This document shows, piece by piece, positions 15,631 through 55,607 of a stretch of 64,000 nucleotides of DNA (the stretch's first letter is position 1; each line of letters starts with the position of its first letter). Both the position numbers and the translations under genes were made by a program. Source of the stretch: Candidatus Electrothrix aestuarii (GTDB lineage: Bacteria; Desulfobacterota; Desulfobulbia; Desulfobulbales; Desulfobulbaceae); contig CP159373.1 of NCBI GenBank assembly GCA_032595685.2, positions 1,323,001 to 1,387,000 on the forward strand, given 5' to 3'. The notes beneath the pieces are model-generated. The model made no database searches, had not been told where the DNA came from, and saw only the letters and a list, made by a program, of their open reading frames with translations.

Positions 15631-15638
15631 AACACTGA

Positions 15639-17369
15639 GTAACCGTTCAGACCCCTCTCATTTTTTACGCAGCAAGAGGCAGAGGAGGTACATCCAGCCC
15701 CTGACGCCGAGCCGTGATAACCTCGGCGAGATATTTCCACGGACAGGCGTTGCGCTTCCTACACGTATCAATCACGCTCGCAAGTATGGCAAACACATGA
15801 CTACCTTGACCATTACGGGTACCGTGGCTTAATTTGCGCGCAATAACCCAATGACGTAACGCTTGCTCCGCCTCATTATTGGTCAGGGGCCACGTCGGAT
15901 TCGACAACACATGAAAAATCGTGTCCCAGTCGTTGAGAAATTCTCTGGACAGCTCGCGTGTTTTTTTATGATCTGAATCGCGATATTTCATGCAGCATTC
16001 CTTAAATTCGGCCAGGAATTCTCTGTATATTGGCAAAAGGTCCGTGGGAGGCCCCTCGCGAGCCTTGTAAATTACATCCATCAACTCGGTGAGCACCGCA
16101 TGGGCCTCGGTGCCGAATGTGCGGGGATCATCGCTCAGGCTCTGTTTCAAACCTTTTGTCTTGCGCAGTAAATGCGCCCAGCAGCGGAGCCTGTTGAGGA
16201 ACTTACGATAGGCATTGTAGCCGTCGCTCATCAGCAATCCCTTAAAGGTTTGGCCGAGCACATAATCAAGTACTTTTTGGCTGCGAAGGCCAATGATGTA
16301 AAAGGTGACTTTCAGCGAGGTAAAGACCCATAACCACTGTTTCTTGCCCCACTCCTTCCAGGATGTCTCATCCACGAACAGGATCAGTGATTCACGCACC
16401 TCCTCAAGAAACTCATCGCTAAGGGGAGAAGCGGCGCGGCCAGCTTCATGGATACATTGATTGATCGTACCGATGCCCAAATCCAATCGCAGCCAATCTT
16501 GCAGAAATTCCCGGATGCGGCGGCGAGAAAGGCGCATGCGCTTGGAGAGGCACACGATCAGAGCGGTCAATTTTGGGCCGACCATGTGCCATTGGCTTAT
16601 TTCAACCCCCCAGTCTTCGTTTTTTCGAGACGATGGGGCATAAGCCGATTGACATGACCACAGCCGCCGCAAGTCGTGTCTCCGTAGATATGCTTGGTGT
16701 TGATCACCTCTATTCCCGGACCGGTGGCATCGCCCACCTCAATATCAACGACATAATGACCGGTGCGAGCGGTGAAGTCGCATGTTTCGTCCAGCTCAAG
16801 GTTACAAGCCGAGCAGGTGCCTGCTTTGTGAATGATGGTGTCGTGTACGGGAAGTTTTTGCGTTCGACCATGCCCGGTGGCACCGGGTTGCTTGCCGGGT
16901 TTATTGCCCTTGGGGCGATCATCGGTATTTTCGGGGGAATCCTGCTGGTCGGACCTGTCCGCATTCTCATCATGCTCGGCGGACTCCTCGTCAGAATCGT
17001 CGAGTTCTATGTCCGTGGCTTCGACTTGCTCTTCATCCGGTTCCTCCTCGTCGGCTTGAGCGTCGGCATCAAACCGGGCCCAGGGGAAATTTGAGCTGGG
17101 AGGCATGGAGCTGTTTTCGGAATTTTGACCCAGCCGTTCGTGAAGTTCTTTGAGGTCATCAAGTGCGAGCAGGCACAGCTCCTTTGCACTCTTACCGGGC
17201 AAGGAGTCAATAAACTGCTTATCTATTTTTAGCAACTCTTCTCTGGATAGGTGCATGCGAACTCAGAGCGTAGATAGATCTCGTAAAAAACGTTGTGACT
17301 GTTAAACTATCGTGATCCTCTTTTTTGTCCAGTTCTTTTTTGTGTGGAATGAGGGGAGTGAACGGTTAC
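15639..17369 (-). mobile_element. IS66-family element, copy 1
   Basis: 1731 bp, ends GTAACCGTTCAGACCCCTCT and (inverted) GTAACCGTTCACTCCCCTC. Left flank AACACTGA (15631-15638) matches the right flank of copy 2 at 55191-55198; right flank TAAAGGAC belongs to the IS1-type element. The two copies differ by one substitution and one T in a T6/T7 run that I can see. The mixed flanks show that this copy has taken part in recombination. Confidence 0.9.
15665..17256 (-). CDS. IS66-type transposase (TnpC), copy 1, two frames
   Basis: N-terminal frame 16597-17256 (219 aa): helical start, long acidic linker, then a zinc ribbon (C-S-A-C ... C-G-G-C-G). C-terminal frame 15665-16672: DDE residues in F-V-D-E-T-S-W, S-D-G-Y-N-A-Y and N-N-E-A-E-Q. 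The frames are out of register by one base at an A6 run (16620-16625); a seventh A gives one polypeptide of about 530 aa. Identical in copy 2, so either a homopolymer undercall in both, a shared lesion, or a -1 frameshift site. Confidence 0.8.
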
Positions 17370-17644
17370 TAAAGGACTGTATCCCGTGTTTCTGAAAAGA
17401 ACGTCCTGCATTCCTTACAGTTAAAGATGCGTCTTCTCCCGCTTTGAGTCATATACGTTGAAGCAGCACGTATATTGCCACGACTCAGCAGGGTATAATA
17501 CTTACACTCGGAATTGGGACATGGCTGTTTCCAGTCTTTAGGTTTTCTCATGGCCTGTTCTCCTGTTGTTTTGAGCCTGCTACCACAAAATTATACAGGG
17601 AGAACGGGGCATTTTCTATTTCAAAGTATTAGCGGGTGAGCACC
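17370..17644 (-). mobile_element. IS1-type element, transposase N-terminal part
   Basis: Codes (17551 to 17370) for a 60-residue zinc-finger start of an IS1-like transposase: C-P-N-S-E-C and C-K-E-C-R-T-F-F-S-E-T. It stops where IS66 copy 1 begins; its first eight bases TAAAGGAC are the duplication shared with 13065-13072. The outer end GGGTGAGCACC at 17644 matches the end of the other half. Confidence 0.8.
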
Positions 17645-18076
17645 CAGCTTCTCGTTATTTCGTTATTTGTCGGCTATACAGTATGGTCTAGTATAGTGCC
17701 AAGGCTTCTTCCTACAGAAGCATTTATCTCTGGGGAATATAGAGGTGCCGCACAATGCATTAGTGTCAAAACTCCAGAGACTGTATTATTTGAACGGGAG
17801 CTGCTATTTACTATTAATCAATCGCTTTTCGAGTGTACAATTGATGGTAGCTCTAAGTTGCCTGGAAGCGATGAGATATATTCCCTTTGGTTTGGCCGAC
17901 GATTCAAGTGCCAAGGCGATGCTCACTACTTCGTTCTTGAATTCGATATGCCGGAAAATAGTGAGTATGGAATCGTAAAGTTAAGGATAACTAACGGAAC
18001 TGTTGACGGTATATTCTGGTCTGCCGACCCTAATTCATCGAACAAGTGGACGATACGAGCGGGTAAGTGCAGATAG
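17645..18076 (+). pseudogene. C-terminal half of the split small membrane-protein gene
   Basis: Begins with the IS1 duplication CAGCTTCT and continues with a membrane helix (L-L-V-I-S-L-F-V-G-Y) and a soluble domain with two cysteines ending G-K-C-R. Joined to 14051-14184 it gives I-Y-R-F-S-Q-L-L-V-I-S-L in frame: a protein of about 185 residues with two N-terminal helices and a periplasmic or cytoplasmic beta-rich domain. No family recognised. A GTG in the IS1 end could start translation of this half. Confidence 0.6.
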
Positions 18077-18145
18077 CAATCGTATCGTTTCGGCGTTGGT
18101 TGTCCCGCTCCTATATCGAACCGGCGCCATCCAACATCGCTATAG

Positions 18146-18283
18146 GTATCACGAAAAAATCGTTATTAGTATAACGGCAGATTCGTTATACGTATCACGG
18201 CAAAATCGTATTGAGTATAACGACCAATTCGCATCGGGTATCACGACCAAATCGTATCGAATATCACGGCAAGGCTATCATGC
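18146..18283. repeat. Six-unit 23-bp tandem repeat
   Basis: Units such as GTATCACGGCAAAATCGTAT plus 3 bases repeat at exact 23-bp spacing from 18146, alternating GTATCACG and GTATAACG starts. Non-coding. Two other arrays of the same period lie at 38641 and 41958. Confidence 0.7.
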
Positions 18284-18367
18284 TCATCGCCCTGGCCTTC
18301 AACCTGACCAGGGACGGGCTGTGAGACAGGTATCAGGGGTAGTTCTATAATGAGGTTTCTGTTTACG
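18270..18367 (+). pseudogene. Remnant of the 3' end of a second nikC-like gene
   Basis: Reads M-L-I-A-L-A-F-N-L-T-R-D-G-L then a stop, and the following bases continue the homology (D-R-Y-Q-G, then the downstream AGTTCT-ATGAGGTTTCTGTTTACG). It is a diverged inverted duplicate of 14253-14335, the end of the nikC-like gene. Confidence 0.6.
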
Positions 18368-18461
18368 GTTTCCGAAGGCTATGTTAATCGCTAGATGAAC
18401 GAGGTAATACCCCTGAAGACCGTAGATTCATTTTTCCGAAGAGGAAGTTCAATTAGTTGAG

Positions 18462-19394
18462 ATGTGGCAGCAATCCATCAATTTTATAGAAGAAGTAATC
18501 GGGGTCCCAACCTCTTTCTATGAAAGCATCTTTGCTACAATACTTGTCGTCTTTCTTTATTTTCTCATTCGAAAAGTCGGCTCTGCTATAATAGCTCGAC
18601 GGAGCAAAGATGCCTCCAGAGAATACATTCTGACCAAATCGCTTTCCTATTTTTCCGGGTTTCTGGTTGTTATCGTCCTTATTCGTATCTGGCTCGGCGG
18701 GATCAAGGGCATGATGGCGTATTTCGGGATACTGTCGGCCGGTTTGGCTATCGCGCTTCAGGATCTTCTCACCAATCTTGCAGGGTGGATATTCATTTCC
18801 AGTCGTAAGCCTTTCATTCTGGGGGACCGTATCCAAATCGGGGAGCATGCGGGTGATGTGATTGATTTGCGCCTCTTCCAATTTTCCTTGATAGAAATCG
18901 GGAAATGGGTGCAGGCGGATCAAAGCACAGGTCGCATCATAAATATCCCAAACGGCCTTGTCTTCAAGGAATCCGTGATAAATTTTACCCAAGGCTTCAG
19001 CTTCATCTGGCATGAAATTCCCGTCATGGTGACCTTTGAAAGTAATTGGGAGAAAGCGAAGTCCATTTTAACCGAGATCGTTAATCGTCATACGGCGATC
19101 AAAAGTGAACAGGCAGCCCAGGAAGTGCGACGTACGGCCAAGAAATACCTTATTCATTATCAGCACCTGACGCCCATTGTCTGGACCTCAGTGGCTGATT
19201 CCGGCATTGTCCTGACGATTCGCTATCTCTCAAATCCTCGGAAAAGACGCTCATCTGAACAAGTCATTTGGGAGGATATTCTTCGCACTTTTGCCCAACA
19301 CGAGGACATAGACTTTGCCTATCCGACAACCCGCTATTACGATAATGCTGTTGAGGGGAAGGAGGGTGCCCGTGCCAGCCGACCATCCAGATAA
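18462..19394 (+). CDS. MscS-family mechanosensitive channel
   Basis: 310 aa. Three helices in the first 110 residues, then the pore/beta-domain signature G-L-A-I-A-L-Q-D-L-L-T-N-L-A-G-W-I-F-I followed by P-F-I-L-G-D-R-I-Q-I, diagnostic of MscS. It releases small solutes when the inner membrane is stretched. It stands alone and unrelated to the nickel genes by function. The C-terminal Arg-rich tail may be a late extension. Confidence 0.9.
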   Translation: MWQQSINFIEEVIGVPTSFYESIFATILVVFLYFLIRKVGSAIIARRSKDASREYILTKSLSYFSGFLVVIVLIRIWLGGIKGMMAYFGILSAGLAIALQDLLTNLAGWIFISSRKPFILGDRIQIGEHAGDVIDLRLFQFSLIEIGKWVQADQSTGRIINIPNGLVFKESVINFTQGFSFIWHEIPVMVTFESNWEKAKSILTEIVNRHTAIKSEQAAQEVRRTAKKYLIHYQHLTPIVWTSVADSGIVLTIRYLSNPRKRRSSEQVIWEDILRTFAQHEDIDFAYPTTRYYDNAVEGKEGARASRPSR

Positions 19395-19568
19395 TCCTGT
19401 ATTGTTTTCATGTTTACCGCCTTGAGCCTTTAATCTGGCCGGGAACTGGCTACCCGATTAACTTTCCGCTATTGCTTTGCAATTTTCGTTTTTTACCAGG
19501 CCATCAAACTCCCCAAGTAATATTGCAGAGTCCGGGAGGAATAAATAAATATAATATCTCTAATTTTT

Positions 19569-21566
19569 ATGAAATTTAACGTGTTGAAGGACATTTTGAG
19601 AAAACAGGAGATTGTTGATTGGCAAGAAATCAATGAGGGAATTGTCTGTAATTATCGCGATGGTGGAGATTATGTATTGTTACGTGATCCGCCCGAAAAT
19701 CCACAGAGCTGGCTTGACCATTTTAAGCATACTGACTCTCGTCGATGGCGTTTTATCAATGCGTTACGCTGGTGGGCAAAGCAGAAGCATATCTCATTGT
19801 CGATTTCCGCAAACGGTAATGCCTGGTATGAACATGGGGATATTTCCGGAGAAATTGATTTGGGCAGGGAGTTGACCATGCTGCTTGAACAATATGATGT
19901 GTTGGAAGCTTATGATGAATTCAGAAAATCAAATTGGCTTGAAATCAAAAAGGAAGAGTTCTCCAACATATTGCAATTAGGTCCGTTTGTAGAAGGACAA
20001 GTAGCTCTGGAAACTGAAGCTGAACCAGAACCTCATATGTTAGGAGCTGCTGTTTCAACTGCTTTCAGCACGATGGTTCTGATGGATGAAGAGGATTTTA
20101 CTCAGGCAATTGAAGATAAAAATTTTGAAGATATCCCAGAGAAATATCCTGAATTGATATTGAGATCGAAAATGGTTGAATGCTTTGGAGAAAAATTTTC
20201 CATCGACATTTGCAAAAAGGATTTCTGCATCGAATTTGATATTGGCAGTAGCTATAGCATCAAATACAGGAAGTTAAAAAAAAGGTTGTCAAGGCAAAGT
20301 GTCGATGCTGTTTTTCGACAGATTTGTGCTGACTATGAAATAGCAAATCAACAGCGGAGTGAAAGTCGACGAATCCTGTTCGCTCATATGGCATCACTGG
20401 GATATATTGTCGATGAGGGTGACGAGGGATATGCTTTCGGGAGAATCAGACGCGAATATTTTTTTGATCCGGCAAAGCATCTGACTGGAAACGATGTCAG
20501 ATCAGATCTTATTTCTTGGCTGCGGGAACAGGATCTGCCCGATAAAATATCATTAGATGCTTCCACACCGATTAAAAAAAGACCGTTGCCGAATCAATCG
20601 CCGCAGAGCATTCCGATGTTGGAAGTTTACGACTTTTCTGCTATCGATACCAAAGCAAAAATAATTCTTGAAAACTATTGGTGTAAAGGTCATGAAACTC
20701 TACACCGACTCTGGGCAAGTCCCCGCTGGTATCAATCTGAGAAAGATTCCTGGCTGGATGAGAAATGGTGGTATGAACAGGCCAAAATGCATAATGATCA
20801 TTTGCTGCTTGCTGTGTTAGGCGATGAGCAGGCTCGTATGTGTATCATCCGAGACATGAAAGAGTTGGCTGATTCCGGATGGAGCGGCTCCTTTTCAATT
20901 TACGAGGGATATTCCCCTTTATACGCTTTTATGGCCAGGGATTATGTCTGGCCAGACGAAAATCCGGTCGAATTCTATCGTGGTCATGACGCTGCCTCCC
21001 CGGAAAGAAATCACTGGCTCAGATTTTTTAATCCGTTACCTTATGAAATCAAACGCTATGCTCAGGGCGTTATTCGCGATGCCATAGCAGCAGATCATGA
21101 TGAAGAGGGATTCGAACGCCTTGAATTATCATTGAGGGTGTTCAAGACAGATGAAATAGGAGAATTCCTTTCCCCGGACGAACTCAATCAGATACACAAA
21201 TTTTGTTCTGAAATAGCGATTATGCATTTTAGCGAGTATTGCACTGAAGATGCTTTTCTTAGGATTGCATATAAATTTGGATGGATAGATATTGTTGAAA
21301 AGTTATCCCACAATGAAAGTTTCTGGCAGCTGTGGGCAACTTGGCCGTTCAACTTTATTTATAGCGGAGACTTTGCGCTGACCCTTTCACTTTTTGACAA
21401 GGATGAATTAACCCAACGACTTTCTGCTTGGGTACTCAGCATGGATGAAAAGAGTCTCCCCCGAGAAATAGTCGAAACATTTAACATCACTGGGCCTGAG
21501 AGTATTATGAAAGAGCAGCAACTCCCTGCAGCCTTGGCATGGTCGCGTACCCGTTTACTGTTTTAG
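19569..21566 (+). CDS. Large hypothetical protein, no family recognised
   Basis: 665 aa, acidic, soluble, unusually rich in tryptophan (including W-R-F-I-N-A-L-R-W-W and W-L-D-E-K-W-W-Y-E-Q). No signal peptide, membrane helix or catalytic motif that I recognise. The start at 19569 has no strong ribosome-binding site. Its lower G+C composition than the following nickel genes suggests separate acquisition. The second half (about 360-480) looks helical and may be repeat-like. Confidence 0.6.
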   Translation: MKFNVLKDILRKQEIVDWQEINEGIVCNYRDGGDYVLLRDPPENPQSWLDHFKHTDSRRWRFINALRWWAKQKHISLSISANGNAWYEHGDISGEIDLGRELTMLLEQYDVLEAYDEFRKSNWLEIKKEEFSNILQLGPFVEGQVALETEAEPEPHMLGAAVSTAFSTMVLMDEEDFTQAIEDKNFEDIPEKYPELILRSKMVECFGEKFSIDICKKDFCIEFDIGSSYSIKYRKLKKRLSRQSVDAVFRQICADYEIANQQRSESRRILFAHMASLGYIVDEGDEGYAFGRIRREYFFDPAKHLTGNDVRSDLISWLREQDLPDKISLDASTPIKKRPLPNQSPQSIPMLEVYDFSAIDTKAKIILENYWCKGHETLHRLWASPRWYQSEKDSWLDEKWWYEQAKMHNDHLLLAVLGDEQARMCIIRDMKELADSGWSGSFSIYEGYSPLYAFMARDYVWPDENPVEFYRGHDAASPERNHWLRFFNPLPYEIKRYAQGVIRDAIAADHDEEGFERLELSLRVFKTDEIGEFLSPDELNQIHKFCSEIAIMHFSEYCTEDAFLRIAYKFGWIDIVEKLSHNESFWQLWATWPFNFIYSGDFALTLSLFDKDELTQRLSAWVLSMDEKSLPREIVETFNITGPESIMKEQQLPAALAWSRTRLLF

Positions 21567-21699
21567 GGGAAAATTTGTTGCTATGAGTATGTTGTTACGT
21601 TCCTCCATAGCTTCTCTATGCTTATTTTCTCGGACTCTAGGCTAGCCGGAGATAAGCTGCACGACACATCCATCCTCTGAAAACATACCCAGTATCCCC

Positions 21700-21999
21700 C
21701 ATCATCCGGGGCTTTTGCCCGACAAAATGAGCTCTTCACCTTATTGTGTAGGCGGTTCATGCTGTGGTAATAATAATACGAAATCAGCAAATGTATTACT
21801 CTGACCTTGATAAACCACAAGGAGGTCTCCTCCAACAACCTCCTCAATACCTTGCTGTTTACTTCTCTGTTGGTGTTACTCCCGGTTCGGACTCCTTCCT
21901 TCCGAGCCGGGGATGACCCACTCTTCTATACCAGATCTACTGATTTCCCCCCTGACAACATCATTCATCTCTTGAAAACCTTAACGAACGGAACATACC
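21700..21999 (+). promoter_or_regulatory. Nickel-type promoter, operator and structured leader (copy L2)
   Basis: Conserved upstream box (GACAAAATGAGCTCTTCACC), then TTATTG-N16-TGTGGT, then ATAATAC-N13-GTATTAC at 21773-21799. The leader carries a hairpin at 21881-21911 (10-bp stem CCCGGTTCGG/CCGAGCCGGG, loop ACTCCTTCCTT). It controls the exported FmdE-like gene at 22000. No other gene in 21567-21999. Confidence 0.65.
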
Positions 22000-23193
22000 A
22001 TGAAGACTTGTCTGCTCACTCTTATCTCCCTGCTCTTTCTTCTCATCGCAGGCCCTGGACAGGCGAAACAGAATGACATCAAGGACCTCGGTGCCGAGGT
22101 GATTCAGGCGGCCTTTTCCAAGCTCCATTTCTCCAGAGTCACGGCTGATAATATCGCCTGCCTGACCAATGCCGGTTATGTGCAGCATGAGGGAAAGAGT
22201 ACCCTGATTCTCTACGATGTGTTCCAGGATAGAACTGGAATCAGTCTGGGCCGGGGTAATCTGCTTCCCATATACAGCGGGCCGGGAGAGTCGCTCTGGT
22301 TTGCCTTTGTGTATAAGAAATCACCGGGCCAGCTGATGCTGACCTATGTTGTGCCCAAAGGGGAGGGTGCAGAGGCCACCAGGCCCATCAATATTTATGT
22401 ACGCAGGCATCAATCCTTTGTGCCCTTTACAGAGTTGCTCGGAGCAAAAACACTCCCCATCATCACCCTGGCGAACGGCTGGTCTGACGGGGTACCGGAA
22501 GATCTCCTTCAGGGAGCCCTGCAACATGATCAGTTCTGCCGAGGGGTCCTGACCGGCTACTTCACAGCTCGTTTTATCCAGAAACATTTTTCTCTGCTCA
22601 GTATAAACAACAGCTGGGACGATGTAACCACCAAGGATCTGCTGCAAGGTACCCTGTCCCATGATCATTTTTGCAGCGGGACGATTACCAGTTACCTCAC
22701 GGCCCGGTTTATCCTGGATGCCTTTCCGCTCCGGGAAGGAGAGCAATATACCTATATCGGCGCACCTGGATGGTGCCGGGATGATTATCTTCTCCATTAC
22801 CTCAACCTGACTCCGGGCGAACGCGGCTATTCCCTCATGCCACCTCCCAAGCCCTGGAAGAAAACGGAACAGAAGGAGGATAACGACGGCATTGTGATTC
22901 GTTTCAACAGTCAGGAGAATACCGGCCAGGCCGCAGCGCTCCGCTTTGATCGCCATGAAGATGCCTTCCGCAAGTTCATCGGGGAACCCGACTTGGAATT
23001 GGATTGGGAGAACCAGCCGTGGTTGCATGTTTGGTATAACCGCTTTTTCCTCCGTCATCGGGACGAACCAGAGTATTTTGTCTCTGTGGTGAAAACAAAG
23101 GATCTGGCGAGCAAAGAGGAGTTTGAGGCGCTGGTCAATCCGAGCACGAATCCGCTTGAGGCGATCCTTGGGGAGAAGAGCTCACGGAACTGA
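22000..23193 (+). CDS. Exported FmdE-like protein with duplicated motif
   Basis: 397 aa with a clear signal peptide cleaved near residue 23 (G-Q-A). Two consecutive segments resemble the metal-binding start of FmdE: L-Q-H-D-Q-F-C-R-G-V-L-T-G-Y-F-T-A-R (about 184-201) and L-S-H-D-H-F-C-S-G-T-I-T-S-Y-L-T-A-R (about 224-241), each His-x-His/Gln-Phe-Cys. A later G-A-P-G-W-C-R-D-D-Y resembles the second FmdE cysteine block. So this is probably a periplasmic metal-binding protein of the FmdE superfamily. It lies behind the nickel-type leader and upstream of fmdE and a FecBCD-type transporter. A role in binding nickel (or molybdenum/tungsten) outside the membrane is inference. Confidence 0.65.
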   Translation: MKTCLLTLISLLFLLIAGPGQAKQNDIKDLGAEVIQAAFSKLHFSRVTADNIACLTNAGYVQHEGKSTLILYDVFQDRTGISLGRGNLLPIYSGPGESLWFAFVYKKSPGQLMLTYVVPKGEGAEATRPINIYVRRHQSFVPFTELLGAKTLPIITLANGWSDGVPEDLLQGALQHDQFCRGVLTGYFTARFIQKHFSLLSINNSWDDVTTKDLLQGTLSHDHFCSGTITSYLTARFILDAFPLREGEQYTYIGAPGWCRDDYLLHYLNLTPGERGYSLMPPPKPWKKTEQKEDNDGIVIRFNSQENTGQAAALRFDRHEDAFRKFIGEPDLELDWENQPWLHVWYNRFFLRHRDEPEYFVSVVKTKDLASKEEFEALVNPSTNPLEAILGEKSSRN

Positions 23194-23343
23194 GTGGTTG
23201 ATGGAAATTTCCCACCTGCACGGTATCGCAGAGTTTCTATTTACTCTTTTCTGGCGACATGTTACATCTCTATGGGAATATGGGAAGGTTACACTTATTC
23301 ACACTGTAGTCTGTAGCAATCACAACTATGAGGAGTTTAACCT

Positions 23344-24914: not shown

Positions 24915-24915
24915 A

Positions 24916-26780: not shown

Positions 26781-26789
26781 GCGGGAACT

Positions 26790-46024: not shown

Positions 46025-48073
46025 ATGAGAACACAAAGGACAACAGAGATGAACCGCAGCAAAAACAGCCTACTGTTACTCAGCGGTATTTTTTTACCCT
46101 TGGTAATTTGCGGGATGCCGGTTACCGGAACAGGAGGTGAACTGTATCAGGGGGCAGCCGATGCTGGTACCGGTGCGCATACCCTTGATACGGTAACAGT
46201 GACAGCATCCAAGATGAAAACAGATATTGCGCGTACCCCGACCAATATCGCGGTGATCTCCAGAGAAGAAATCGAGCGGCATCCTTCAGCAGCCACGATA
46301 TTTGAACTGCTGCAGCAGGTGAATGTGCCGGGCGTCTACCTCCCTGTCCTGCCGGGCAGTCTGCCTGTGGACGGTCAACTCAGCACCAGAGGCAGCGAAT
46401 CCACCCCCTGGGCTGTGCGAATTCTGGTCAACGGGATTGAATTCAACAAGGGGAACGGATACATCGTGCCTCCAAGGATACCGACGCACGATATAGAACG
46501 GATCGAGATCGTGAAAACACCTTCCGCAGTGTATGGAGATCAGGCCATCTACGGCGTGATTAATATCATTACGCGCAGGTCGGACAAACCGCTTGAAGGC
46601 AAAGTAGGAGTTTCATCCGACAGCTTTGGTTCAAGCAATTTTCATACGGTGCTGAACGGACAGAAAAACAACTGGGAATACTTCCTGGATATCGGTATGA
46701 ACCGCTTTAACGGTTTTCAGGATCGAGCCTTTGAAGACGATAACATGCTGTATGCTCAGGTCCGGTATTATATGAATGACATATCCTCCCTTACCTTTCA
46801 TGCCTCGCATTTCGAATCAGATGCCAACTATGCAAACAACCTCAGTTTTGAGGAATTTGCTGCTGATCCGAGTCAGAATCCCGGACTTGATCAGCCCTTG
46901 GAAGATAATTACGATCTCTACGCCCTGGTCTATGACACCTCATTCGGTCCCCACGACCTCACAATTAAAACTGATTTCAAGGATGAGAACACCAAGATGT
47001 TCTGGTCCGGGTTGTACTTTGAGTTTGATGAATGGGAACTGCATCCGGAATTGAATCTCACCCTCCGCCATGATCTGGGTTCGGTACGTAACACCTTGGT
47101 GCTCGGCGGAGAATACCGGTATCACGAGCTGGATACCATGCTCTTTTCCGCACCGGACAATCTGGTTGGACTGCAGATCGGAGACCGGCACCGGGAAGAC
47201 ACAACCTATGCCGCTTTTCTTCAGGATCAGGCTGAAATAACAAGTCAGCTAACCTTGACCGCAGGAATCCGGTATGACAATTATCAGCAGGATCAGGAAG
47301 GCCGGGTGAATGCAAGCAACACCTGGAGCCAGTCAGATTCCTGTTTCAGCCCGAAATTGGGCATGACCTATACTGTTTCTCAGGCCGTGAAACTTTTTTC
47401 CGGCTTTAACAGCGGTTTTAAAAGCCCTGTACGGGTTCCCGGCGCCGCTGCTTCCGGCAACCTTAAACCGGAACGGATTAATGCCTATGAATTCGGTCTG
47501 CGGGGACAGGCACTGCCCTGGCTCCATTATGAAACAGCTCTGTTCTATCATCAGGTTGAGGATAAAATCGTTAGCGTTGCCCGGCAGCAGCTTGAAAACA
47601 TCGGCAAAACCGAAGCCAGAGGACTGGAACTCAGTTTGAACGCGCAGTTTGACAGCGGATTGTACAGTAAATTCGGCTACACCTGGCAGGAATCCGAGTT
47701 TAAGGAACATCAGATCAATGACGTATCCTATAATGGCAATATGCTCCCCAATGTTCCAGAGCATATTGTCGGCCTGACAATAGGTTTTCGTCACAGCACC
47801 TGGGGCGATATTGCAGTCAGTCCAACGTTCCACGGTGATATATATCTGAACGACAGCAACACCTCAAAGTGGGACAGCTACTGGCTTCTCGGAGCCAGAT
47901 ATGCAAAGCAGTTTCAGAGCTATCCGGGGATGGAGTTCTTTGTCCACGGAGAAAATCTGACCGATGAGCAGGAGGTCACGCAGAGCGGCAGCACCAGCTC
48001 GGAGGTAGGTTCAGAAGCTGTTTATCCTGTTCCGGGCATCAGGGTATCCACAGGGTTACGCTTTACCTTTTAA
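46025..48073 (+). CDS. TonB-dependent receptor, second
   Basis: 682 aa (Met at 46049, M-N-R-S-K-N, is an alternative start). Signal peptide, TonB-box-like D-T-V-T-V-T-A, plug with A-V-Y-G-D-Q-A-I-Y-G-V-I-N-I-I-T-R-R, and a barrel ending R-V-S-T-G-L-R-F-T-F with a C-terminal Phe needed for outer-membrane assembly. More similar in style to cobalamin/siderophore receptors than the first and third. The DUF4198 gene follows by 137 bases. Confidence 0.92.
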   Translation: MRTQRTTEMNRSKNSLLLLSGIFLPLVICGMPVTGTGGELYQGAADAGTGAHTLDTVTVTASKMKTDIARTPTNIAVISREEIERHPSAATIFELLQQVNVPGVYLPVLPGSLPVDGQLSTRGSESTPWAVRILVNGIEFNKGNGYIVPPRIPTHDIERIEIVKTPSAVYGDQAIYGVINIITRRSDKPLEGKVGVSSDSFGSSNFHTVLNGQKNNWEYFLDIGMNRFNGFQDRAFEDDNMLYAQVRYYMNDISSLTFHASHFESDANYANNLSFEEFAADPSQNPGLDQPLEDNYDLYALVYDTSFGPHDLTIKTDFKDENTKMFWSGLYFEFDEWELHPELNLTLRHDLGSVRNTLVLGGEYRYHELDTMLFSAPDNLVGLQIGDRHREDTTYAAFLQDQAEITSQLTLTAGIRYDNYQQDQEGRVNASNTWSQSDSCFSPKLGMTYTVSQAVKLFSGFNSGFKSPVRVPGAAASGNLKPERINAYEFGLRGQALPWLHYETALFYHQVEDKIVSVARQQLENIGKTEARGLELSLNAQFDSGLYSKFGYTWQESEFKEHQINDVSYNGNMLPNVPEHIVGLTIGFRHSTWGDIAVSPTFHGDIYLNDSNTSKWDSYWLLGARYAKQFQSYPGMEFFVHGENLTDEQEVTQSGSTSSEVGSEAVYPVPGIRVSTGLRFTF

Positions 48074-48210
48074 TCTGTTTTTTATATGAAAGTGTCAGGA
48101 AAAAAACTCATTTGAGCAGTCCGAGCAACTTTCATTTTTTGTTATCCCGTCCCAGAGGGCGGAATGGAATCTATTCTTATCGGTAATATAAAGGCACAAA
48201 AGGATATCTC

Positions 48211-48972
48211 ATGCAGAAACAGAGTGGACACACAACAGGCAAGGGTATACTGATTTTGGCGGCAGTAATACTGTACACAGTACTTGCTGTGCTGCCGGTT
48301 CAGGCGCATAATCTCTGGCTTATCGGCGATGCGGATGGAAAAGGTAGCGGTCTGGTGCATCTCTATTTTGAACATCATATCGGTCCGGGTGACGGTGCGT
48401 ATAACGGCCCGATTGTGGAACGCGGGAAAACGTGGCTCAGGAGGCCGGACAAAGACAGCCATCCTGTTGAACTCAAGGAGATTACAGAAGGAGAGACCAA
48501 GTATCTTACAGGCAGCACCGGGCCTGTATCCGGTTCCTACGCGCTTGATCATACCAGCCTGTACGGCATCTATGCAGGCCGTCTGGATTTCTTTCACGGA
48601 CGCTTTATCAAGGCTGACACAAAAGAAGATCTTGAAAAGCTTGCAGAGTCTTCCGATGTCCCGGTGCAGATTATTCCTTCCTGGACAGATAAAGGTCTTA
48701 TGCTGCAAATCAAATATTTTGCTCTCCCATGGGCCAGAACACCTCTCTGGATGATGCAGCCGGAAGAAAAGGGAGAAGATGGAAAAATGAAAGAAAAAGA
48801 GATGCAGACGAATAGTAAGGGTGAAGTTCTTATCGGGAAGCTCAAACCGGGAACTTATCACTTCAGTACCCGTATCGTTGAAGACGATCCTGCAGGTGCT
48901 TTTGAAAATCAGGCATACAAGGGCCTGATGCACGGTTCCACACTGACTCTGAAGCTTGGCAGTAACTTTTAA
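48211..48972 (+). CDS. DUF4198 periplasmic metal-binding protein
   Basis: 253 aa. Signal peptide ending V-Q-A, so the mature protein would begin H-N-L-W-L, with further His in L-V-H-L-Y-F-E-H-H. This N-terminal His plus downstream His pattern is typical of DUF4198/NikK-type proteins found with nickel and cobalt transporters. Two Ig-like beta domains are expected. It lies between two TonB receptor genes and probably hands over metal in the periplasm. Confidence 0.8.
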   Translation: MQKQSGHTTGKGILILAAVILYTVLAVLPVQAHNLWLIGDADGKGSGLVHLYFEHHIGPGDGAYNGPIVERGKTWLRRPDKDSHPVELKEITEGETKYLTGSTGPVSGSYALDHTSLYGIYAGRLDFFHGRFIKADTKEDLEKLAESSDVPVQIIPSWTDKGLMLQIKYFALPWARTPLWMMQPEEKGEDGKMKEKEMQTNSKGEVLIGKLKPGTYHFSTRIVEDDPAGAFENQAYKGLMHGSTLTLKLGSNF

Positions 48973-49079
48973 GGCTCTTTGCCTGATTCAGTAACGTAAT
49001 AGAGATGATCGGATCTCTGTAAACAACCTCTCCTTGGCGGCGGCCGCAGTTTCTCCATCTTCTTTCTCTGTGGTCGTCG

Positions 49080-49351
49080 TTTTTTCTTCCCCCACCCTCC
49101 GGGCAATCCACCCGACAAAATGAGCTCTTCACCTTATTGTGCAGGCGGTTAAGGCTGTGGTAGGGATAATACGAAATCAGAAAACGTATTATCGTTGCCT
49201 TGATAAACCACAAGGAGGTCTCCTCCAACAACCTCCTCAATACCTTGCTGTTTGCTTCTCTATTAGCGGCTACGTCCCGGTTTGGGCTTCTTCCTCTCCA
49301 AACCGGGGAAGGCCCTCTACTCTGTAAAAGATGTACTGATTATTTTTTAAA
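49080..49351 (+). promoter_or_regulatory. Nickel-type promoter, operator and structured leader (copy L6)
   Basis: Upstream box, TTATTG-N16-TGTGGT, ATAATAC-N13-GTATTAT (49166-49192) in a 9-bp arm GATAATACG/CGTATTATC; leader hairpin 49276-49307 (CCCGGTTTGG/CCAAACCGGG, loop GCTTCTTCCTCT) and CTGTAAAAGATGTACTGA before the start. Nearly identical to L2 through the middle of the leader. Confidence 0.65.
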
Positions 49352-51394
49352 ATGCGCAAGAATCCCAAGAAGCACCTCCTCTTTACACTGGCTATGCTCG
49401 CAATAGCATCTTCCGGTGCCGCTACGAACAATACAGAACCTCAAGAAAAGAACACCGAGAGAAAGGATGCCCCGCAACCCACTACCATAATGACTATGGG
49501 TGAGATAGTAGTGAGCGGTGAACAGGATAACCCTGCTGTGGATTTACCCGGCTCTGTGGATGTGGTCAGCGAAGAAGAGATCGCCCGCCAGAATAATAGG
49601 ACCGCCTTGGATGCCCTGCGCAATGTGCCCGGCATCACCATCGGCGATTACAACTCCGGCGGGGTGCCTAACGGTTTCACCCTGCGTGGCTTTGGCAACG
49701 GCAGCCACGGGAACCATACTGCGGTGACCATAGACGGTATTCCCTATAACTACCATATGGGCAGCGCGGATGGGGCCATTGATCTCAACCAGCTCATTGC
49801 CGATGACATCGTTGGCGTGGAGGTGGTTAAGGGGCCTATTGATGCCCGCTACGCCAACTGGAACCGGGCCGGGGTGATTCATTTCCACACCCGCAATGAG
49901 GGCAATTTCAGCCGGGCCAAGGCCGAGTACGGCAGTTTCAATACCCGCAAGGGCTATGCCTCGCTGGGCAGCGAACACCTGGACGGCAAGTTCAATCAGG
50001 TCTACTCGCTGGAGTATTTCGATACCGACGGCTATCGGGATAACTCGGCCTATGACCGGCAGAACTTCTACGGCAAGTGGTTCTATCATTTCACTGATGA
50101 TCTGAAGACCGGGCTGGTTCTCCATACCTATGATGCGGACTGGCACACTGCTGGCTACCTGCCCGCATACCTCTGGACTCAGAATCCCAAGCAATCCATC
50201 CAGGAAGATGACGGAGGCTGGAAGGACCTTTCCGAGGCGCAGTTGCACTTGGACTGGGATATCAACGAGGCTATGCCGCTGGAGTTTAAGGCCTGGGTAG
50301 TGGATGAAGATTACAGCCGCTGGGCCGATTGGGGTGGCGGCCAGACCGAAAGCCATTACGAACACCGCATCCTCGGGGCCCTGACCAATCTCGGCTATGA
50401 TCTTGAGGCAGGGGAGACCGGGCTGCTCCGTTTTGACACCGGCTTTGACTGGCGCTCCTTCAGCACCCTGGAACAGAAGTTCAATACCACCTACCGTCAT
50501 CGTACTGAACTGACCAGCGATAATGACTACGATCTTAACGACTTTGGTCTCTATGCCAAGGTGAATTATGATCCCTTTGCCTCTTTGCGTCTCTTTGCCG
50601 GAGGACGTTACGACCTGTTCAGCGGTGAGAGCACGGACAACAGTACTGGTGCATCTGCTGATATGCGGGATTACGATATCTGGACCGCCAGTGGTGGGGT
50701 TATCTATTCTTTTCTGGAGCATTACAGCCTCTACGCCAATACCGGCACCGGCTTCCAACTCCCCCAAGGCAGCGATAAATACCTGACCAATGCCCCTACG
50801 GAGAGTGATCTCCTCCACTGGGAGATTGGCACCAAGGCTGAGTGGGAGCGGGTTCGACTCCGCTATGCCTATTTTCACAGTGACGAGGACACCATCCGTT
50901 GGATTGCCGGAGAATATATTAATGAAGGGGATACAGAGAGGAATGGCCACGAGTTTGAAGTCAGCCTTTCGCCTTTGCCCGGTCTCCAGCTCTTCTCCTC
51001 CTGCACCTTGCACGAGGCCACCTACGAAGGCGGGGAGAATCAAGGCAAGGAGGTCCCCTCTATTCCTGAGTACATCTTTAAGGTCGGGGGTGAGTATCGC
51101 CTGGCCCAGGGCACCTCTCTCAGTCTCTGGTACCGGGATACCGGTGAATGGTACACCACAGAGGATAATCTTTTCTCCTACCCTGGCTATGAGGTCGTGG
51201 ACATGCGGCTGGCCCAGGAGATTAAGGAGGATTGGGAGCTGGCTCTGCATATTAAGAACCTCCTGGATGAGGAGTATTCCGAGTATGTGGGCTATTGGAG
51301 TGATCCCTACGGAGTGCCGGATAATCAGTATGCGGGCAGCGATGGTCGCTATATCGGGCTCACCCTGAGTTATAGGCATGGCGGTTGGAATTGA
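49352..51394 (+). CDS. TonB-dependent receptor, third
   Basis: 680 aa. Signal peptide, TonB-box-like G-E-I-V-V-S-G, plug with V-P-G-I-T-I-G-D-Y-N-S-G-G and F-T-L-R-G-F-G-N-G-S-H-G-N-H, barrel to the C-terminus. It resembles the receptor at 39890 in length and in the plug (A-V-T-I-D-G-I versus A-I-A-V-D-G-I), so the two are paralogues. The His-rich plug segment may touch the metal. Behind leader L6. Confidence 0.92.
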   Translation: MRKNPKKHLLFTLAMLAIASSGAATNNTEPQEKNTERKDAPQPTTIMTMGEIVVSGEQDNPAVDLPGSVDVVSEEEIARQNNRTALDALRNVPGITIGDYNSGGVPNGFTLRGFGNGSHGNHTAVTIDGIPYNYHMGSADGAIDLNQLIADDIVGVEVVKGPIDARYANWNRAGVIHFHTRNEGNFSRAKAEYGSFNTRKGYASLGSEHLDGKFNQVYSLEYFDTDGYRDNSAYDRQNFYGKWFYHFTDDLKTGLVLHTYDADWHTAGYLPAYLWTQNPKQSIQEDDGGWKDLSEAQLHLDWDINEAMPLEFKAWVVDEDYSRWADWGGGQTESHYEHRILGALTNLGYDLEAGETGLLRFDTGFDWRSFSTLEQKFNTTYRHRTELTSDNDYDLNDFGLYAKVNYDPFASLRLFAGGRYDLFSGESTDNSTGASADMRDYDIWTASGGVIYSFLEHYSLYANTGTGFQLPQGSDKYLTNAPTESDLLHWEIGTKAEWERVRLRYAYFHSDEDTIRWIAGEYINEGDTERNGHEFEVSLSPLPGLQLFSSCTLHEATYEGGENQGKEVPSIPEYIFKVGGEYRLAQGTSLSLWYRDTGEWYTTEDNLFSYPGYEVVDMRLAQEIKEDWELALHIKNLLDEEYSEYVGYWSDPYGVPDNQYAGSDGRYIGLTLSYRHGGWN

Positions 51395-51436
51395 TATTAA
51401 CGGCAGTTATCCGCATTAAGACGAAAGAAACAAAAA

Positions 51437-51483
51437 AGCCGTGAAATATGAGACCACGTTGAGTGGTACCATATTCCACGGCT
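51437..51483 (-). terminator. Hairpin with minus-strand T tract
   Basis: AGCCGTGAAATATG pairs with CATATTCCACGGCT, with an inner ACCAC/GTGGT stem; on the minus strand it ends in TTTTTT. It would stop transcripts coming from the IS element, and its symmetry may also end the receptor transcript. Confidence 0.55.
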
Positions 51484-51659
51484 CTCGCGGGACAGCGAAT
51501 TCTACCGGGAAGCTCTGTTGACGGACAAAGCCTACCGTAGGCAGTGTATGCAATGCGTATTTTCCTGTCAAGACAACGCTGTTTTTTTCTCTATCGTCCC
51601 CTCTAAACAAGCTTTCCTCGGCAGCTACAGTTTTTATCCATCTTCTTTTTCTGTGGCTG

Positions 51660-51744
51660 CCGGTTTTTCCCACCCCTCGGGCAATCCATCCAACAAAATG
51701 AGCTTTTCACCTTATTGTGCAGGCGGTTAAGGCTATGGTGCTAG
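51660..51744 (+). promoter_or_regulatory. Nickel-type promoter split by an IS (copy L7)
   Basis: The box and TTATTG-N16-TATGGT are followed by GCTAG and then the IS91-like element; the sequence resumes at 53414 as CTAGTAACAC-N13-GTGTTAT. Counting CTAG once gives TATGGT-GCTA-GTAACAC, the normal spacing. After about 15 more bases IS66 copy 2 begins, so the gene once driven by this promoter is gone. Confidence 0.6.
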
Positions 51745-53413
51745 TACAGCGCGGCGTAAATAACCCTCATCTTTTAGCAGAAAATTATGCGAAGTACCGC
51801 ATGAAAACTCCCCATTCGCTCATTTCAAAACGCAGTTCGGAGAATTTCACCAAACCTGACTAAAAAATCCTGATTTCGATGTCAGAGACGGTGAAATTCA
51901 TTTTATGTGACAACAAATTTCTCGCCCTTCAACATGTGGAGCGAAAAACTATCTGAAATTGATTTTGCGCAAAAAAACGACTCACGCAATTACAGAGAGT
52001 TAAAAATTCCTCAAACTGCAAAAAAAATAAGCGAATGGGGAGGAACAAAACGCCCTACGGGCGGATTAAAACGGAAGCAATTGCGGTATCCACTTAACCT
52101 GCCGACCCGAAGAGTTTCTCTTGTTGCATTCTTGTTTACTCTTGCTTTCCACAAAAGGTCCGTCTCTGCTCAGATCAAAGATATCTCCATAGTCAGGATG
52201 CCAAATCCGCCATAAAAACATTTTTTCTTTACAGTTTGGACATGTTAACGGATCTTTCCCGAAACTCTGTACTAGACGCTCTCTCCAGCTCAATGACCTT
52301 GAATCACTTTTCATGAATTCAAAAGTCTTCTGGATAAAACGTTTACAGTCCATCAAAATCTCTATCGCGATTGTTTTTGTACGTCGAGAATATAACCCAT
52401 AATGGCGGACCATCTTGAATCCCTTTAGCGGGATATGGTCAATTAATCGTTGTATGAACTCTTTGGCTGGAATCGCTTCGGTAACTTTAACTTCTGTTTT
52501 ATGATCAATATACCAAAATGTTACTTCCTCACCATCGTAATTCGTTATCTTGTGCTCTGCCAATGCTGGACGAGCCATATAGCGACCAATATATCGAGCT
52601 GCATGTCTTGCTGATGTCATCTTGCTTTTACCATTTACATAAAAACCATTACGTTGGCTTTTAAACAGGTAATCTATGAATCTTACATTTTCTTTTGTTT
52701 GCGGCAAGCTAGCCTTTATTTCAGTCAGCAAATAATATTGCCATTTTTTTCTAAGCAGACCATATGGCAAAAATGGAATATCAACCCACTGATTGGAAGA
52801 TGTTAATCCTCCTTCTGTCATTAACATATGGACATGCGGATTAAACTTAAGATCTCTTCCAAACGTATGGACAACTAATAGAATTCCCGGAACAGCATCA
52901 ACTCCTTTACTTTGAAGTACTTCCACAGCCGCTTTTGAAGCACAATCCATCATAATCTTGATCAGCATACGATCACTAAAAATTATCTTTCGGAGTTCTT
53001 GTGGAATGGTAAACACTAAATGTCGATGAACTACGTCGAATATACTTTTCACTGTCTTTTCAACCCATTCATCGACGTATCGCTTACCGCAAGACGTACA
53101 GAATCGACACTTACAGGTGAACCCTACTCTCTTTTTTCAAAACAATTCGGACAAATATACTCGACATAGCCATTGGTAGACTCTCCACAGTTGATCATTT
53201 TTTCTACATTTTCAACGATTGACTCCCAGTGAAGGCTTGAGTACCTGCTTGCCAATTCAACGCAGACTACATACCAAAAATCACGAAAGATTAATTTTAT
53301 CAGCTTATTTTTCATTAAGCTAATACTCTATTCGCAATTACAACATGTTGAAAGGAAAATTTTATAATTTCCTATACAATGAAAAAGTAGTGGTTAATTT
53401 ACGCCTAGCTGTA
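51745..53413 (-). mobile_element. IS91-like (HUH/Y2) insertion element
   Basis: About 1.67 kb between two CTAG tetranucleotides; the ends TACAGCGCGGCGTAAAT and, inverted, TACAGCTAGGCGTAAATT are related. If CTAG is counted as part of the element the limits are 51741-53417. The left 320 bases (51745-52065) are non-coding. Placed in a nickel-type promoter. Confidence 0.7.
52066..53315 (-). CDS. IS91-family Y2 transposase, frameshifted
   Basis: Two frames: 53124-53315 (N-terminal part with C-P-N-C) and 52066-53052. Between them C-R-F-C-T-S-C-G-K-R completes a zinc-binding domain if one base is added to an A6 run (53132-53137). The catalytic part has the HUH motif F-N-P-H-V-H-M-L-M-T-E-G-G and Y-G-L-Y near the end as the candidate tyrosine pair. 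HUH transposases nick single-stranded DNA. Confidence 0.78.
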
Positions 53414-53458
53414 CTAGTAACACGTAAGTGATAAAAGTGTTATTTGAGCTACGTAAGG

Positions 53459-55190
53459 GTAACCGTTCAGACCCCTCTCATTTTTTACGCAGCAAGAGGC
53501 AGAGGAGGTACATCCAGCCCCTGACGCCGAGCCGTGATAACCTCGGCGAGATATTTCCACGGACAGGCGTTGCGCTTCCTACACGTATCAATCACGCTCG
53601 CAAGTATGGCAAACACATGACTACCTTGACCATTACGGGTACCGTGGCTTAATTTGCGCGCAATAACCCAATGACGTAACGCTTGCTCCGCCTCATTATT
53701 GGTCAGGGGCCACGTCGGATTCGACAACACATGAAAAATCGTGTCCCAGTCGTTGAGAAATTCTCTGGACAGCTCGCGTGTTTTTTTATGATCTGAATCG
53801 CGATATTTCATGCAGCATTCCTTAAATTCGGCCAGGAATTCTCTGTATATTGGCAAAAGGTCCGTGGGAGGCCCCTCGCGAGCCTTGTAAATTACATCCA
53901 TCAACTCGGTGAGCACCGCATGGGCCTCGGTGCCGAATGTGCGGGGATCATCGCTCAGGCTCTGTTTCAAACCTTTTGTCTTGCGCAGTAAATGCGCCCA
54001 GCAGCGGAGCCTGTTGAGGAACTTACGATAGGCATTGTAGCCGTCGCTCATCAGCAATCCCTTAAAGGTTTGGCCGAGCACATAATCAAGTACTTTTTGG
54101 CTGCGAAGGCCAATGATGTAAAAGGTGACTTTCAGCGAGGTAAAGACCCATAACCACTGTTTCTTGCCCCACTCCTTCCAGGATGTCTCATCCACGAACA
54201 GGATCAGTGATTCACGCACCTCCTCAAGAAACTCATCGCTAAGGGGAGAAGCGGCGCGGCCAGCTTCATGGATACATTGATTGATCGTACCGATGCCCAA
54301 ATCCAATCGCAGCCAATCCTGCAGAAATTCCCGGATGCGGCGGCGAGAAAGGCGCATGCGCTTGGAGAGGCACACGATCAGAGCGGTCAATTTTGGGCCG
54401 ACCATGTGCCATTGGCTTATTTCAACCCCCCAGTCTTCGTTTTTTCGAGACGATGGGGCATAAGCCGATTGACATGACCACAGCCGCCGCAAGTCGTGTC
54501 TCCGTAGATATGCTTGGTGTTGATCACCTCTATTCCCGGACCGGTGGCATCGCCCACCTCAATATCAACGACATAATGACCGGTGCGAGCGGTGAAGTCG
54601 CATGTTTCGTCCAGCTCAAGGTTACAAGCCGAGCAGGTGCCTGCTTTGTGAATGATGGTGTCGTGTACGGGAAGTTTTTGCGTTCGACCATGCCCGGTGG
54701 CACCGGGTTGCTTGCCGGGTTTATTGCCCTTGGGGCGATCATCGGTATTTTCGGGGGAATCCTGCTGGTCGGACCTGTCCGCATTCTCATCATGCTCGGC
54801 GGACTCCTCGTCAGAATCGTCGAGTTCTATGTCCGTGGCTTCGACTTGCTCTTCATCCGGTTCCTCCTCGTCGGCTTGAGCGTCGGCATCAAACCGGGCC
54901 CAGGGGAAATTTGAGCTGGGAGGCATGGAGCTGTTTTCGGAATTTTGACCCAGCCGTTCGTGAAGTTCTTTGAGGTCATCAAGTGCGAGCAGGCACAGCT
55001 CCTTTGCACTCTTACCGGGCAAGGAGTCAATAAACTGCTTATCTATTTTTAGCAACTCTTCTCTGGATAGGTGCATGCGAACTCAGAGCGTAGATAGATC
55101 TCGTAAAAAACGTTGTGACTGTTAAACTATCGTGATCCTCTTTTTTGTCCAGTTCTTTTTTTGTGTGGAATGAGGGGAGTGAACGGTTAC
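53459..55190 (-). mobile_element. IS66-family element, copy 2
   Basis: 1732 bp, same as copy 1 apart from one substitution near 54319 and one extra T near the right end. Right flank AACACTGA (55191-55198) is the nikB duplication; left flank ACGTAAGG is the cut promoter L7. Confidence 0.9.
53485..55076 (-). CDS. IS66-type transposase (TnpC), copy 2, two frames
   Basis: Same as copy 1: zinc-ribbon frame 54417-55076 and DDE frame 53485-54492, out of register at the T6 run 54440-54445. Confidence 0.8.
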
Positions 55191-55607
55191 AACACTGAGG
55201 GAATCCAGCCAGGTGCCCTGCTTCATCCCGGCAAGGATGCCCAAAGGCAGGGAAATGCTCAGGGCGATCAGGATGGCTGCTGCGGCCAGAGTCAGGGTCT
55301 TAGGGAAACGTTGGCTGATAAGCTCGGCAACCGGGGCCTCCTCCACCAGGGAGCGGCCCAGATCCAGGCGGAGCACATGCCGGAGCCAGTACAGATACTG
55401 GAGATGGAGGGGCTTATCCAGGCCCTCGCTCTCCCGAATCCACTCCACCGTGGCCTGATCCACCTCGTAGGCCCCGCCGTAGCGGGACACGGCGATCTCC
55501 AAAGCCGGGTCGCCCGGCGCAAAGCGCATCAGGGTGTAGGTGCAGAAGGTTGCGCCCAGCGCCACCAGTAGGGTGCTGAGGATCTTTTTGCTGATAAGGG
55601 TCATCAT
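55191..55607 (-). pseudogene. N-terminal half of the NikB/DppB-type permease, cut by IS66
   Basis: 139 codons from ATG 55607 (GGAAGG upstream): first helix, the periplasmic loop R-F-A-P-G-D-P-A and D-L-G-R-S-L, then L-G-I-L-A-G-M-K-Q. It ends T-W-L-D-S-L-S-V at the IS66 edge; translation would read 22 foreign residues into the IS. The rest is at 15112-15630. Confidence 0.85.

What the first reader, a model, noticed from the sequence alone, without database searches (positions are those of the whole stretch)
15631..55198. A nikB-type permease split over 39.5 kb by two IS66 copies, with its target duplication and reading frame intact
The last 172 codons of a NikB-type permease (15112-15630) and the first 139 (55191-55607) each abut an IS66 copy. 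AACACTGA lies at the outer edge of both (15631-15638 and 55191-55198). Joining the halves with one copy of that octamer restores T-W-L-D-S-L-S-V-S-L-S-V-A-G in frame and a 311-aa protein of normal length. So one IS66 insertion in nikB is the ancestral event, and everything between the copies was placed there by recombination or transposition. nikADE (58.9-62.3 kb) and nikC (14.3 kb) would then be one operon.
Basis: seen in the sequence. Interest (0 to 1): 0.85.

Follow-up and report, generated by a model that had tools for sequence, protein, structure and literature searches.

The report
Metal-uptake block moved into nickel gene
In a cable bacterium (electricity-conducting filaments that need nickel), a mobile element cut a gene of a likely nickel importer, and a neighbouring 36-kb block that includes metal-uptake genes came to lie, flipped, inside the cut; it is a striking natural gene loss made by ordinary DNA rearrangement.

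Summary
Window nikB is split between 15112-15638 and 55191-55607, each part abutting a 1.73-kb IS66 copy, with AACACTGA at both outer edges. Candidatus Electrothrix scaldis GW3-3 and a MAG titled Ca. E. gigas hold uninterrupted nikB, so the empty site is seen directly. The interpretation needs one change. The 36 kb between the copies is not simply incoming DNA: 18.7 kb of it, in colinear pieces from one end to the other, is the neighbourhood of nikC in E. scaldis. There the order is O (paralogous Opp operon) - C (block) - N (nikC, nikB 3' part) - P (nikB 5' part, nikEDA, TonB receptor); in the window it is O - N - inverted C - P. A second relative shares the O-C order, so the window is derived. 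A second target octamer, GTCCTTTA, split between 13065 and 17370 in an IS1-like element, marks where C was detached; a 102-bp IS66-type MITE sits on that scar. Best route: C left as a circle with one IS66, through ends shared by IS66 and the MITE, then integrated into the IS66 in nikB. Double inversion fits equally on paper. The published putative nickel importer operon is thus broken; NikM (CbiM) is intact elsewhere.

The parts
14278..15096 (-). nikC-type permease, intact
   Evidence: passes NCBIfam NF045474 Opp2C, 309.1 vs cut-off 300; 96% identical to G007:473276-474094
15112..15630 (-). nikB 3' part (172 codons)
   Evidence: Opp2B model positions 131-300; 98% identical to G002 and G007
15631..15638 (.). 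AACACTGA, left copy of the nikB target duplication
   Evidence: single site in G007, 474629-474636, GACACTGA
15639..17369 (-). IS66 copy 1 (transposase 15665-16672, accessory ORF 16597-17256)
   Evidence: PF03050 1.5e-36; ends GTAACCGTTCA / TGAACGGTTAC
17370..17646 (-). 5' part of an IS1-like element; its edge TAAAGGAC (17370-17377) is the reverse complement of GTCCTTTA at 13065
   Evidence: contiguous with the other part in an 81%-identical element of G003 with 8-bp overlap; outer end inferred from the sequence
17647..53458 (.). Relocated block C, inverted relative to E. scaldis (matching pieces lie between 18262 and 51668): MscS, FmdE-type proteins, methyltransferase, periplasmic-binding/FecCD/ATPase importer, Mrp antiporter operon, three TonB receptors, P-type cation ATPase, IS91-like copy
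53451..53458 (.). ACGTAAGG, inner flank of copy 2 with no partner found
   Evidence: once in the window
53459..55190 (-). IS66 copy 2 (transposase 53485-54492)
55191..55198 (.). AACACTGA, right copy of the nikB target duplication
55191..55607 (-). nikB 5' part (139 codons)
   Evidence: Opp2B model positions 2-128; 93% identical to G007
12955..12962 (.). AGAACTAA, left flank of the scar
12963..13064 (+). 102-bp IS66-type MITE sitting at the O-N scar
   Evidence: single copy in G000; relatives in G004, G005, G006; flanking 8-mers match exactly in G006, 7 of 8 in G005, not in G004
13065..14053 (+). 3' part of the IS1-like element, beginning GTCCTTTA
   Evidence: PF03400 3e-08; G003 junction
58935..59903 (-). 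nikE-type ATPase
   Evidence: below the NikE cut-off
59906..60673 (-). nikD-type ATPase
   Evidence: below the NikD cut-off
60745..62520 (-). nikA-type solute-binding protein, 591 aa
   Evidence: PF00496; best NCBIfam Opp5A_nikA but below cut-off
62429..63169 (-). methyltransferase of the operon
63210..64000 (-). TonB-dependent receptor upstream of the operon (runs out of the window to window-equivalent 65561)
   Evidence: PF00593; one 775-aa alignment to G007:479472-481799
55950..58925 (.). further insertions between nikB and nikE: IS3-type (rve) transposase and a DUF2281/DUF3368 pair
   Evidence: window 55692-58952 answers to about 120 bp in G007
6545..6551 (.). frameshift in the paralogous permease nikB2 (one G fewer in a homopolymer than E. 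scaldis)

Best explanation
The window is a Candidatus Electrothrix chromosome. (1) An IS66 element inserted in nikB at AACACTGA (the empty site is shown in two relatives). (2) A mobile element inserted at GTCCTTTA in an IS1-like element just downstream of nikC (the uninterrupted kind of element is shown at another place in G003; the position next to nikC is inferred from the window). (3) The block C between the paralogous Opp operon and nikC left its place and came to lie, inverted, in the IS66 of nikB (block order shown; path inferred). Most likely path: an IS66 at the far end of C and the MITE at GTCCTTTA exchanged at their shared 19-bp ends, releasing C with one IS66 as a circle of 37.8 kb and leaving the MITE on the scar; the circle then integrated into the nikB IS66 by homologous recombination over 1.7 kb. 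nikB is therefore broken and the putative nickel importer lacks one permease; the cell would rely on NikMKLQO, of which I tested only NikM.
For: Empty nikB site in G007, identified as E. scaldis GW3-3 by its length of 5,089,909 bp. 18.7 kb of C, five colinear pieces, in G007 451061-473356, inverted and next to nikC. G006 has the same O-C adjacency and orientation, so the window is the derived state. GTCCTTTA split between 13065 and 17370; an element of the same kind is whole in G003 with an 8-bp overlap, though its letters at the site differ. No 11-base IS66 end, at up to 1 mismatch, in 60 kb of G007, 40 kb of G006 or 20 kb of G002 C110, so these relatives lack the insertions in those stretches. 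A token model of this path reproduces the observed order, orientation and flanks exactly; a single inversion cannot; a plain composite transposon predicts an empty scar and plain IS66/IS66 recombination a full IS66 there, not a MITE. IS66 recombination recurs in this genome: 5 of 9 near-full-length copies lack matching own flanks, and a second pair (L002/L009) separates by about 30 kb two flanks that are neighbours in G003 and G002.
Against: The IS66 assumed at the far end of C would have had unmatched flanks (AGAACTAA against CCTTACGT), so that step is not marked by a duplication. The exact O-scar and C-end boundaries have only short dispersed matches in relatives. About half of C (17.4 of 36.1 kb) has no match at the E. 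scaldis locus. G006 has no nikB orthologue, so it speaks only for the O-C order, and one 245-bp piece there is out of order. Two inversions through the same ends give the same product. Exchange over 19 bp is short for RecA and may need transposase (recalled). AGAACTAA also occurs inside the MITE, which my model does not explain. No reads were available.
Confidence: 0.7

Rival explanations
1. Two successive inversions, each through IS66-type ends, shuffled the blocks; no circle ever existed.
For: Reproduces the observed order and flanks exactly in the token model; an inversion-like split by IS66 is seen at the L002/L009 pair.
Against: Needs two exchanges over about 19 bp instead of one short and one over 1.7 kb.
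Confidence: 0.2
2. A composite transposon: two IS66 copies flanking C moved as one unit into nikB and made the AACACTGA duplication themselves.
For: Outer duplication with unmatched inner flanks is what a composite transposon leaves; copies are in direct orientation.
Against: Predicts a plain junction at the donor, but a MITE lies there without matching flanks.
Confidence: 0.2
3. Assembly error at the IS66 repeats: nikB carries one IS66, and C sits elsewhere or as a separate circle.
For: [quoted passage not shown] scaldis (passages of PMC10926707); copies are nearly identical.
Against: The O-N scar with the MITE has no copy of this IS66 and shows by itself that C is not in its old place; inverted C cannot arise by swapping direct repeats alone (inference).
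Confidence: 0.08
4. The block as a whole is foreign DNA that arrived on a mobile element.
For: 17.4 of 36.1 kb, among it the Mrp operon (30.5-37.4 kb) and the cation ATPase, has no match at the E. scaldis locus, so parts of C may be additions (or losses in E. scaldis).
Against: Five colinear pieces spread over 18262-51668, 18.7 kb in sum, are 90-98% identical to the neighbour DNA in E. scaldis.
Confidence: 0.04

Closest known systems
Nik/Opp/Dpp putative nickel importer of cable bacteria (PMC11247825)
   Same: TonB receptor directly upstream of the operon, A-B-C-D-E components, described as full in strain GW3-3 (section 18 read)
   Different: nikB split by 39.5 kb here; nickel as substrate is unproven in that paper too
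IS66-family insertion sequences
   Same: DDE_Tnp_IS66 transposase, 8-bp target duplications, inverted ends
   Different: the copies here served as recombination partners; 5 of 9 lack matching own flanks
Composite transposon
   Same: cargo between two IS copies with outer target duplication
   Different: donor scar carries a MITE, and the cargo came from the same locus
IS26-type translocatable unit (recalled)
   Same: a circle with one IS plus cargo integrating at a resident IS copy
   Different: IS66, not IS6 family; circle inferred, not seen
Block moves by IS-mediated homologous recombination (recalled)
   Same: ordinary mechanism in IS-rich genomes
   Different: both target octamers survive in two halves, so the history can be read

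Membership tests
Opp2-type nickel ABC importer (NCBIfam NF045470/NF045474) | permeases above the curated equivalog cut-offs | tested here: met
   intact G007 NikB 359.2 vs 350; window NikC 309.1 vs 300
Opp2-type nickel ABC importer (NCBIfam NF045470/NF045474) | solute-binding protein and ATPases above nickel cut-offs | tested here: not met
   Opp5A_nikA 272.9 vs 600, NikD 202 vs 318.7, NikE 184.3 vs 332.55
Opp2-type nickel ABC importer (NCBIfam NF045470/NF045474) | transports nickel | not testable with these tools
   no assay
IS66 family | DDE_Tnp_IS66 transposase | tested here: met
IS66 family | 8-bp target duplication | tested here: met
   4 of 9 near-full-length copies have matching own flanks; nikB duplication confirmed by the empty site
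IS66 family | accessory ORFs tnpA/tnpB (recalled as typical) | tested here: inconclusive
   besides the DDE ORF only a 219-aa ORF with a DUF6444 hit below cut-off
Composite transposon | outer target duplication around two IS copies | tested here: met
Composite transposon | donor site consistent with removal of the unit | tested here: not met
   MITE at the scar
Translocatable unit / circle | circular intermediate | not testable with these tools
   needs reads or PCR

The most novel reading that the evidence does not exclude
Block C with one IS66 is a still-mobile 37.8-kb metal-uptake unit that can leave as a circle and re-enter at other IS66 copies, so cable bacteria shuffle TonB receptors, importers and ion pumps as a package, at times at the cost of nickel import.
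Probability: 0.12. Interest if true: 0.6.

Novelty: new member of a known kind. Interest (0 to 1): 0.36.

Why it matters
Cable bacteria conduct current through fibres with a nickel cofactor, and which importer feeds it is open. A strain in which the putative Nik/Opp/Dpp importer is broken, beside a close relative with it intact, is a natural comparison: nickel content, cofactor signal and conductivity can be measured in both. The value is limited because Ca. E. yaqonensis YB6 is reported to lack this operon yet to show the nickel cofactor (passages of PMC12093952). The locus also shows how IS66 copies and a MITE rework a genome while leaving a readable record, and it suggests that presence tables built from gene hits could miss a split gene.

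Tried and rejected
Rejected: foreign island as a whole; single inversion; the two inner flanks as a target duplication of their own (TAAAGGAC and ACGTAAGG do not match); a known riboswitch in the repeated leader upstream of the TonB receptors (Rfam: in the window one match at gathering score, Acido-Lenti-1; none up to E 1 at 45400-46100, the one leader tested that way). Naming the window's own species failed: its length, 5,110,699 bp, matches none of the four sizes I saw (GW3-3, GW3-4, HY10-6, YB6). Paper searches for Electrothrix with transposase and insertion sequence gave none, and cable bacteria with closed genome and rearrangement gave one, PMC11247825; its sections 17 and 18 and passages speak of a nikMQO rearrangement in E. 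gigas, not of this locus. I saw no supplementary tables. PMC10926707, PMC12093952, PMC13047784 and PMC11976967 were seen as passages only. IS66 literature searches were seen as listings with abstract beginnings. The 113-bp duplicate of the nikC end (14246-14358 and 18262-18374, 85% alike) was looked at and left unexplained.
Full report
What was checked. Both IS66 copies, both AACACTGA octamers and both nikB parts are at the stated places. Joined with one octamer they give 311 aa plus stop. Two given octamers agree by chance about once in 65,000 (4^8), but the decisive evidence is the empty site: in G007 the two window parts abut with an 8-bp BLAST overlap at 474630-474637, and the gene there is 311 aa.

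Who it is. The window lies in G000, one contig of 5,110,699 bp. The nikBC contig of G002 is letter for letter a contig titled Ca. Electrothrix gigas AU1_5 over the 19,424 bases compared. G007 has 5,089,909 bp, the size printed for Ca. Electrothrix scaldis GW3-3. So this is a cable bacterium, Desulfobulbaceae. The species of G000 is not established.

Where the block came from. BLAST of the window against 60 kb of G007 gives, along G007: window 1666-10222 forward in pieces; 51668-45560, 42026-37471, 29361-24089, 23293-21674 and 19388-18262 reversed; then 14246-15639 forward, 55192-55692 forward and 58952-63998 forward. The five reversed pieces sum to 18.7 kb of the 36.1 kb between the IS66 copies and keep their order from end to end. 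So the core of block C belongs next to nikC and has been inverted and moved into nikB. The rest of C (among it 19.4-21.7 kb, the Mrp operon, the cation ATPase and the IS91-like copy) has no match at that locus and may be added in this lineage or lost in E. scaldis. G006 (75-82% identical in most of the matched pieces) has nikB2/nikA2 followed directly by the same TonB receptor end of C in the same relative orientation; it has no nikB orthologue, and one 245-bp piece is out of order there. Two relatives agree on O-C, so the window is derived. C is about as rich in G+C as its surroundings (51% against 51-55%).

The second split octamer. The IS1-like element is in two parts, 13065-14053 and 17370-17646. 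In G003, at another place, an element about 81% identical has the two parts contiguous with an 8-bp overlap, though its letters at the site differ. So something with an 8-bp target duplication sat in it at GTCCTTTA. The part next to nikC now carries a 102-bp element with IS66-like ends (12963-13064); the other part carries IS66 copy 1. The 102-bp element is a MITE: similar elements occur in G004, G005 and G006, with exact 8-bp flanks in G006, 7 of 8 in G005, and none in the G004 copy. In the window its flanks do not match (AGAACTAA, GTCCTTTA).

How it happened. I wrote the blocks, flanks and element orientations as tokens and tested routes. Excision at the shared ends of an IS66 at the far side of C and the MITE, then integration of the circle into the nikB IS66, reproduces the observation exactly. 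So do two inversions through the same ends. Composite transposition, or plain IS66/IS66 recombination, leaves the wrong scar (nothing, or a full IS66). One inversion cannot do it. I prefer the circle because only one of its two exchanges uses the short 19-bp homology. That preference is inference, and the IS66 at the far side of C is assumed.

A general habit of this genome. Of 9 near-full-length IS66 copies in G000, 4 have matching own 8-bp flanks and 5 do not. Copy 1, copy 2, L002 and L003 differ by 0-2 positions and all four lack matching flanks; L005, 3-5 differences away, and L006-L008, 28 or more away, have matching flanks. L009, split by an insertion near one end, lacks matching flanks too. 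L002 and L009 share GGCGCAGC, and their outer flanks are neighbours in G003 and in G002 C83 at 73-76% identity. In G003 a 711-aa frame with a NACHT match runs across that point; the frame in G002 was not examined. So a second gene seems to have been split by the same IS over about 30 kb.

What is lost. The E. scaldis operon reads TonB receptor - methyltransferase - solute-binding protein - two ATPases - nikB - nikC. This fits the published description of the putative cable-bacterial nickel importer with a TonB receptor directly upstream. NikC of the window and intact NikB of G007 pass the Opp2 nickel permease cut-offs; the solute-binding protein and the ATPases pass no nickel cut-off. In the window nikB is split, an IS3-type element and a DUF2281/DUF3368 pair separate nikE from nikB, and the paralogous permease nikB2 has a one-base frameshift in a homopolymer that could be a sequencing error. 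NikM (CbiM) is intact at C1:3173901-3174479; I did not test NikK, L, Q, O.

Limits. No reads; no supplementary tables; the far end of C and the left flank of the scar have only short dispersed matches in relatives.

Noticed in passing
window 8533-8784 (-), 21695-21945, 45558-45806, 49084-49351, shorter at 38917-38974 and 51601-51739: A roughly 200-250-bp leader is repeated upstream of a solute-binding protein, an FmdE-type gene and two TonB receptors, with an inverted repeat whose arms change together (GTAACAC/GTGTTAC, ATAATAC/GTATTAT). With one copy as query the genus search gave 4 matches in G000 and 4 in G007, all at this cluster, and 2 short ones in G004; other queries gave further short matches in G001, G002, G006 and elsewhere in G000 and G007. 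No Rfam match in the one leader tested. Perhaps a metal-regulated operator or RNA.
   Followed up: partly
window 52043-53386: IS91-like (Y2_Tnp) element: at least 38 places of 1.25 kb or more at 100% (rounded) in G000 counting this one, some head to tail (C1:169474-170816 and 170817-172160); 40 of 69 candidates were scored, so a lower bound. The longest match in the 7 other genomes is 559 bp at 95% in G006. A recent burst.
   Followed up: partly
window 28469-29361 and 37471-38356: An Mrp antiporter operon sits between 0.89-kb direct repeats (97% alike) that contain the 3' end of an ABC ATPase gene; E. scaldis has one copy and no operon there. Mrp DNA 96-97% identical lies elsewhere in G002 and G003. 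It looks like integration of a circle.
   Followed up: partly
window 14246-14358 and 18262-18374: The 3' end of nikC is present twice (85% alike), on the two sides of the old IS1-like insertion; E. scaldis has one.
   Followed up: partly
L036 / L085 (G002 C110): A MAG titled Ca. Electrothrix gigas AU1_5 carries intact nikBC and part of the operon, while PMC11247825 says the operon is absent in E. gigas; in this contig the ADE side is inverted relative to nikBC. Misbinning is possible.
   Followed up: partly
window 12955-12962 and 13005-13012: AGAACTAA flanks the MITE and also occurs inside it; three occurrences in 64 kb on this strand. Unexplained.
   Followed up: no
window 11220-12762: A different IS66-family element (PF03050 at 11625-12740) lies just left of the scar, with other ends (GTAACTAATCACAGGGTA); part of it matches E. 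scaldis 450030-450365.
   Followed up: no
G007:445164-446847 against window 6838-8520: The paralogous solute-binding protein is one 560-aa frame in the window but two overlapping frames (402 and 233 aa) in E. scaldis.
   Followed up: no
window 42325-42371 (-): Acido-Lenti-1 RNA match, 39.4 bits against a gathering score of 37.
   Followed up: no
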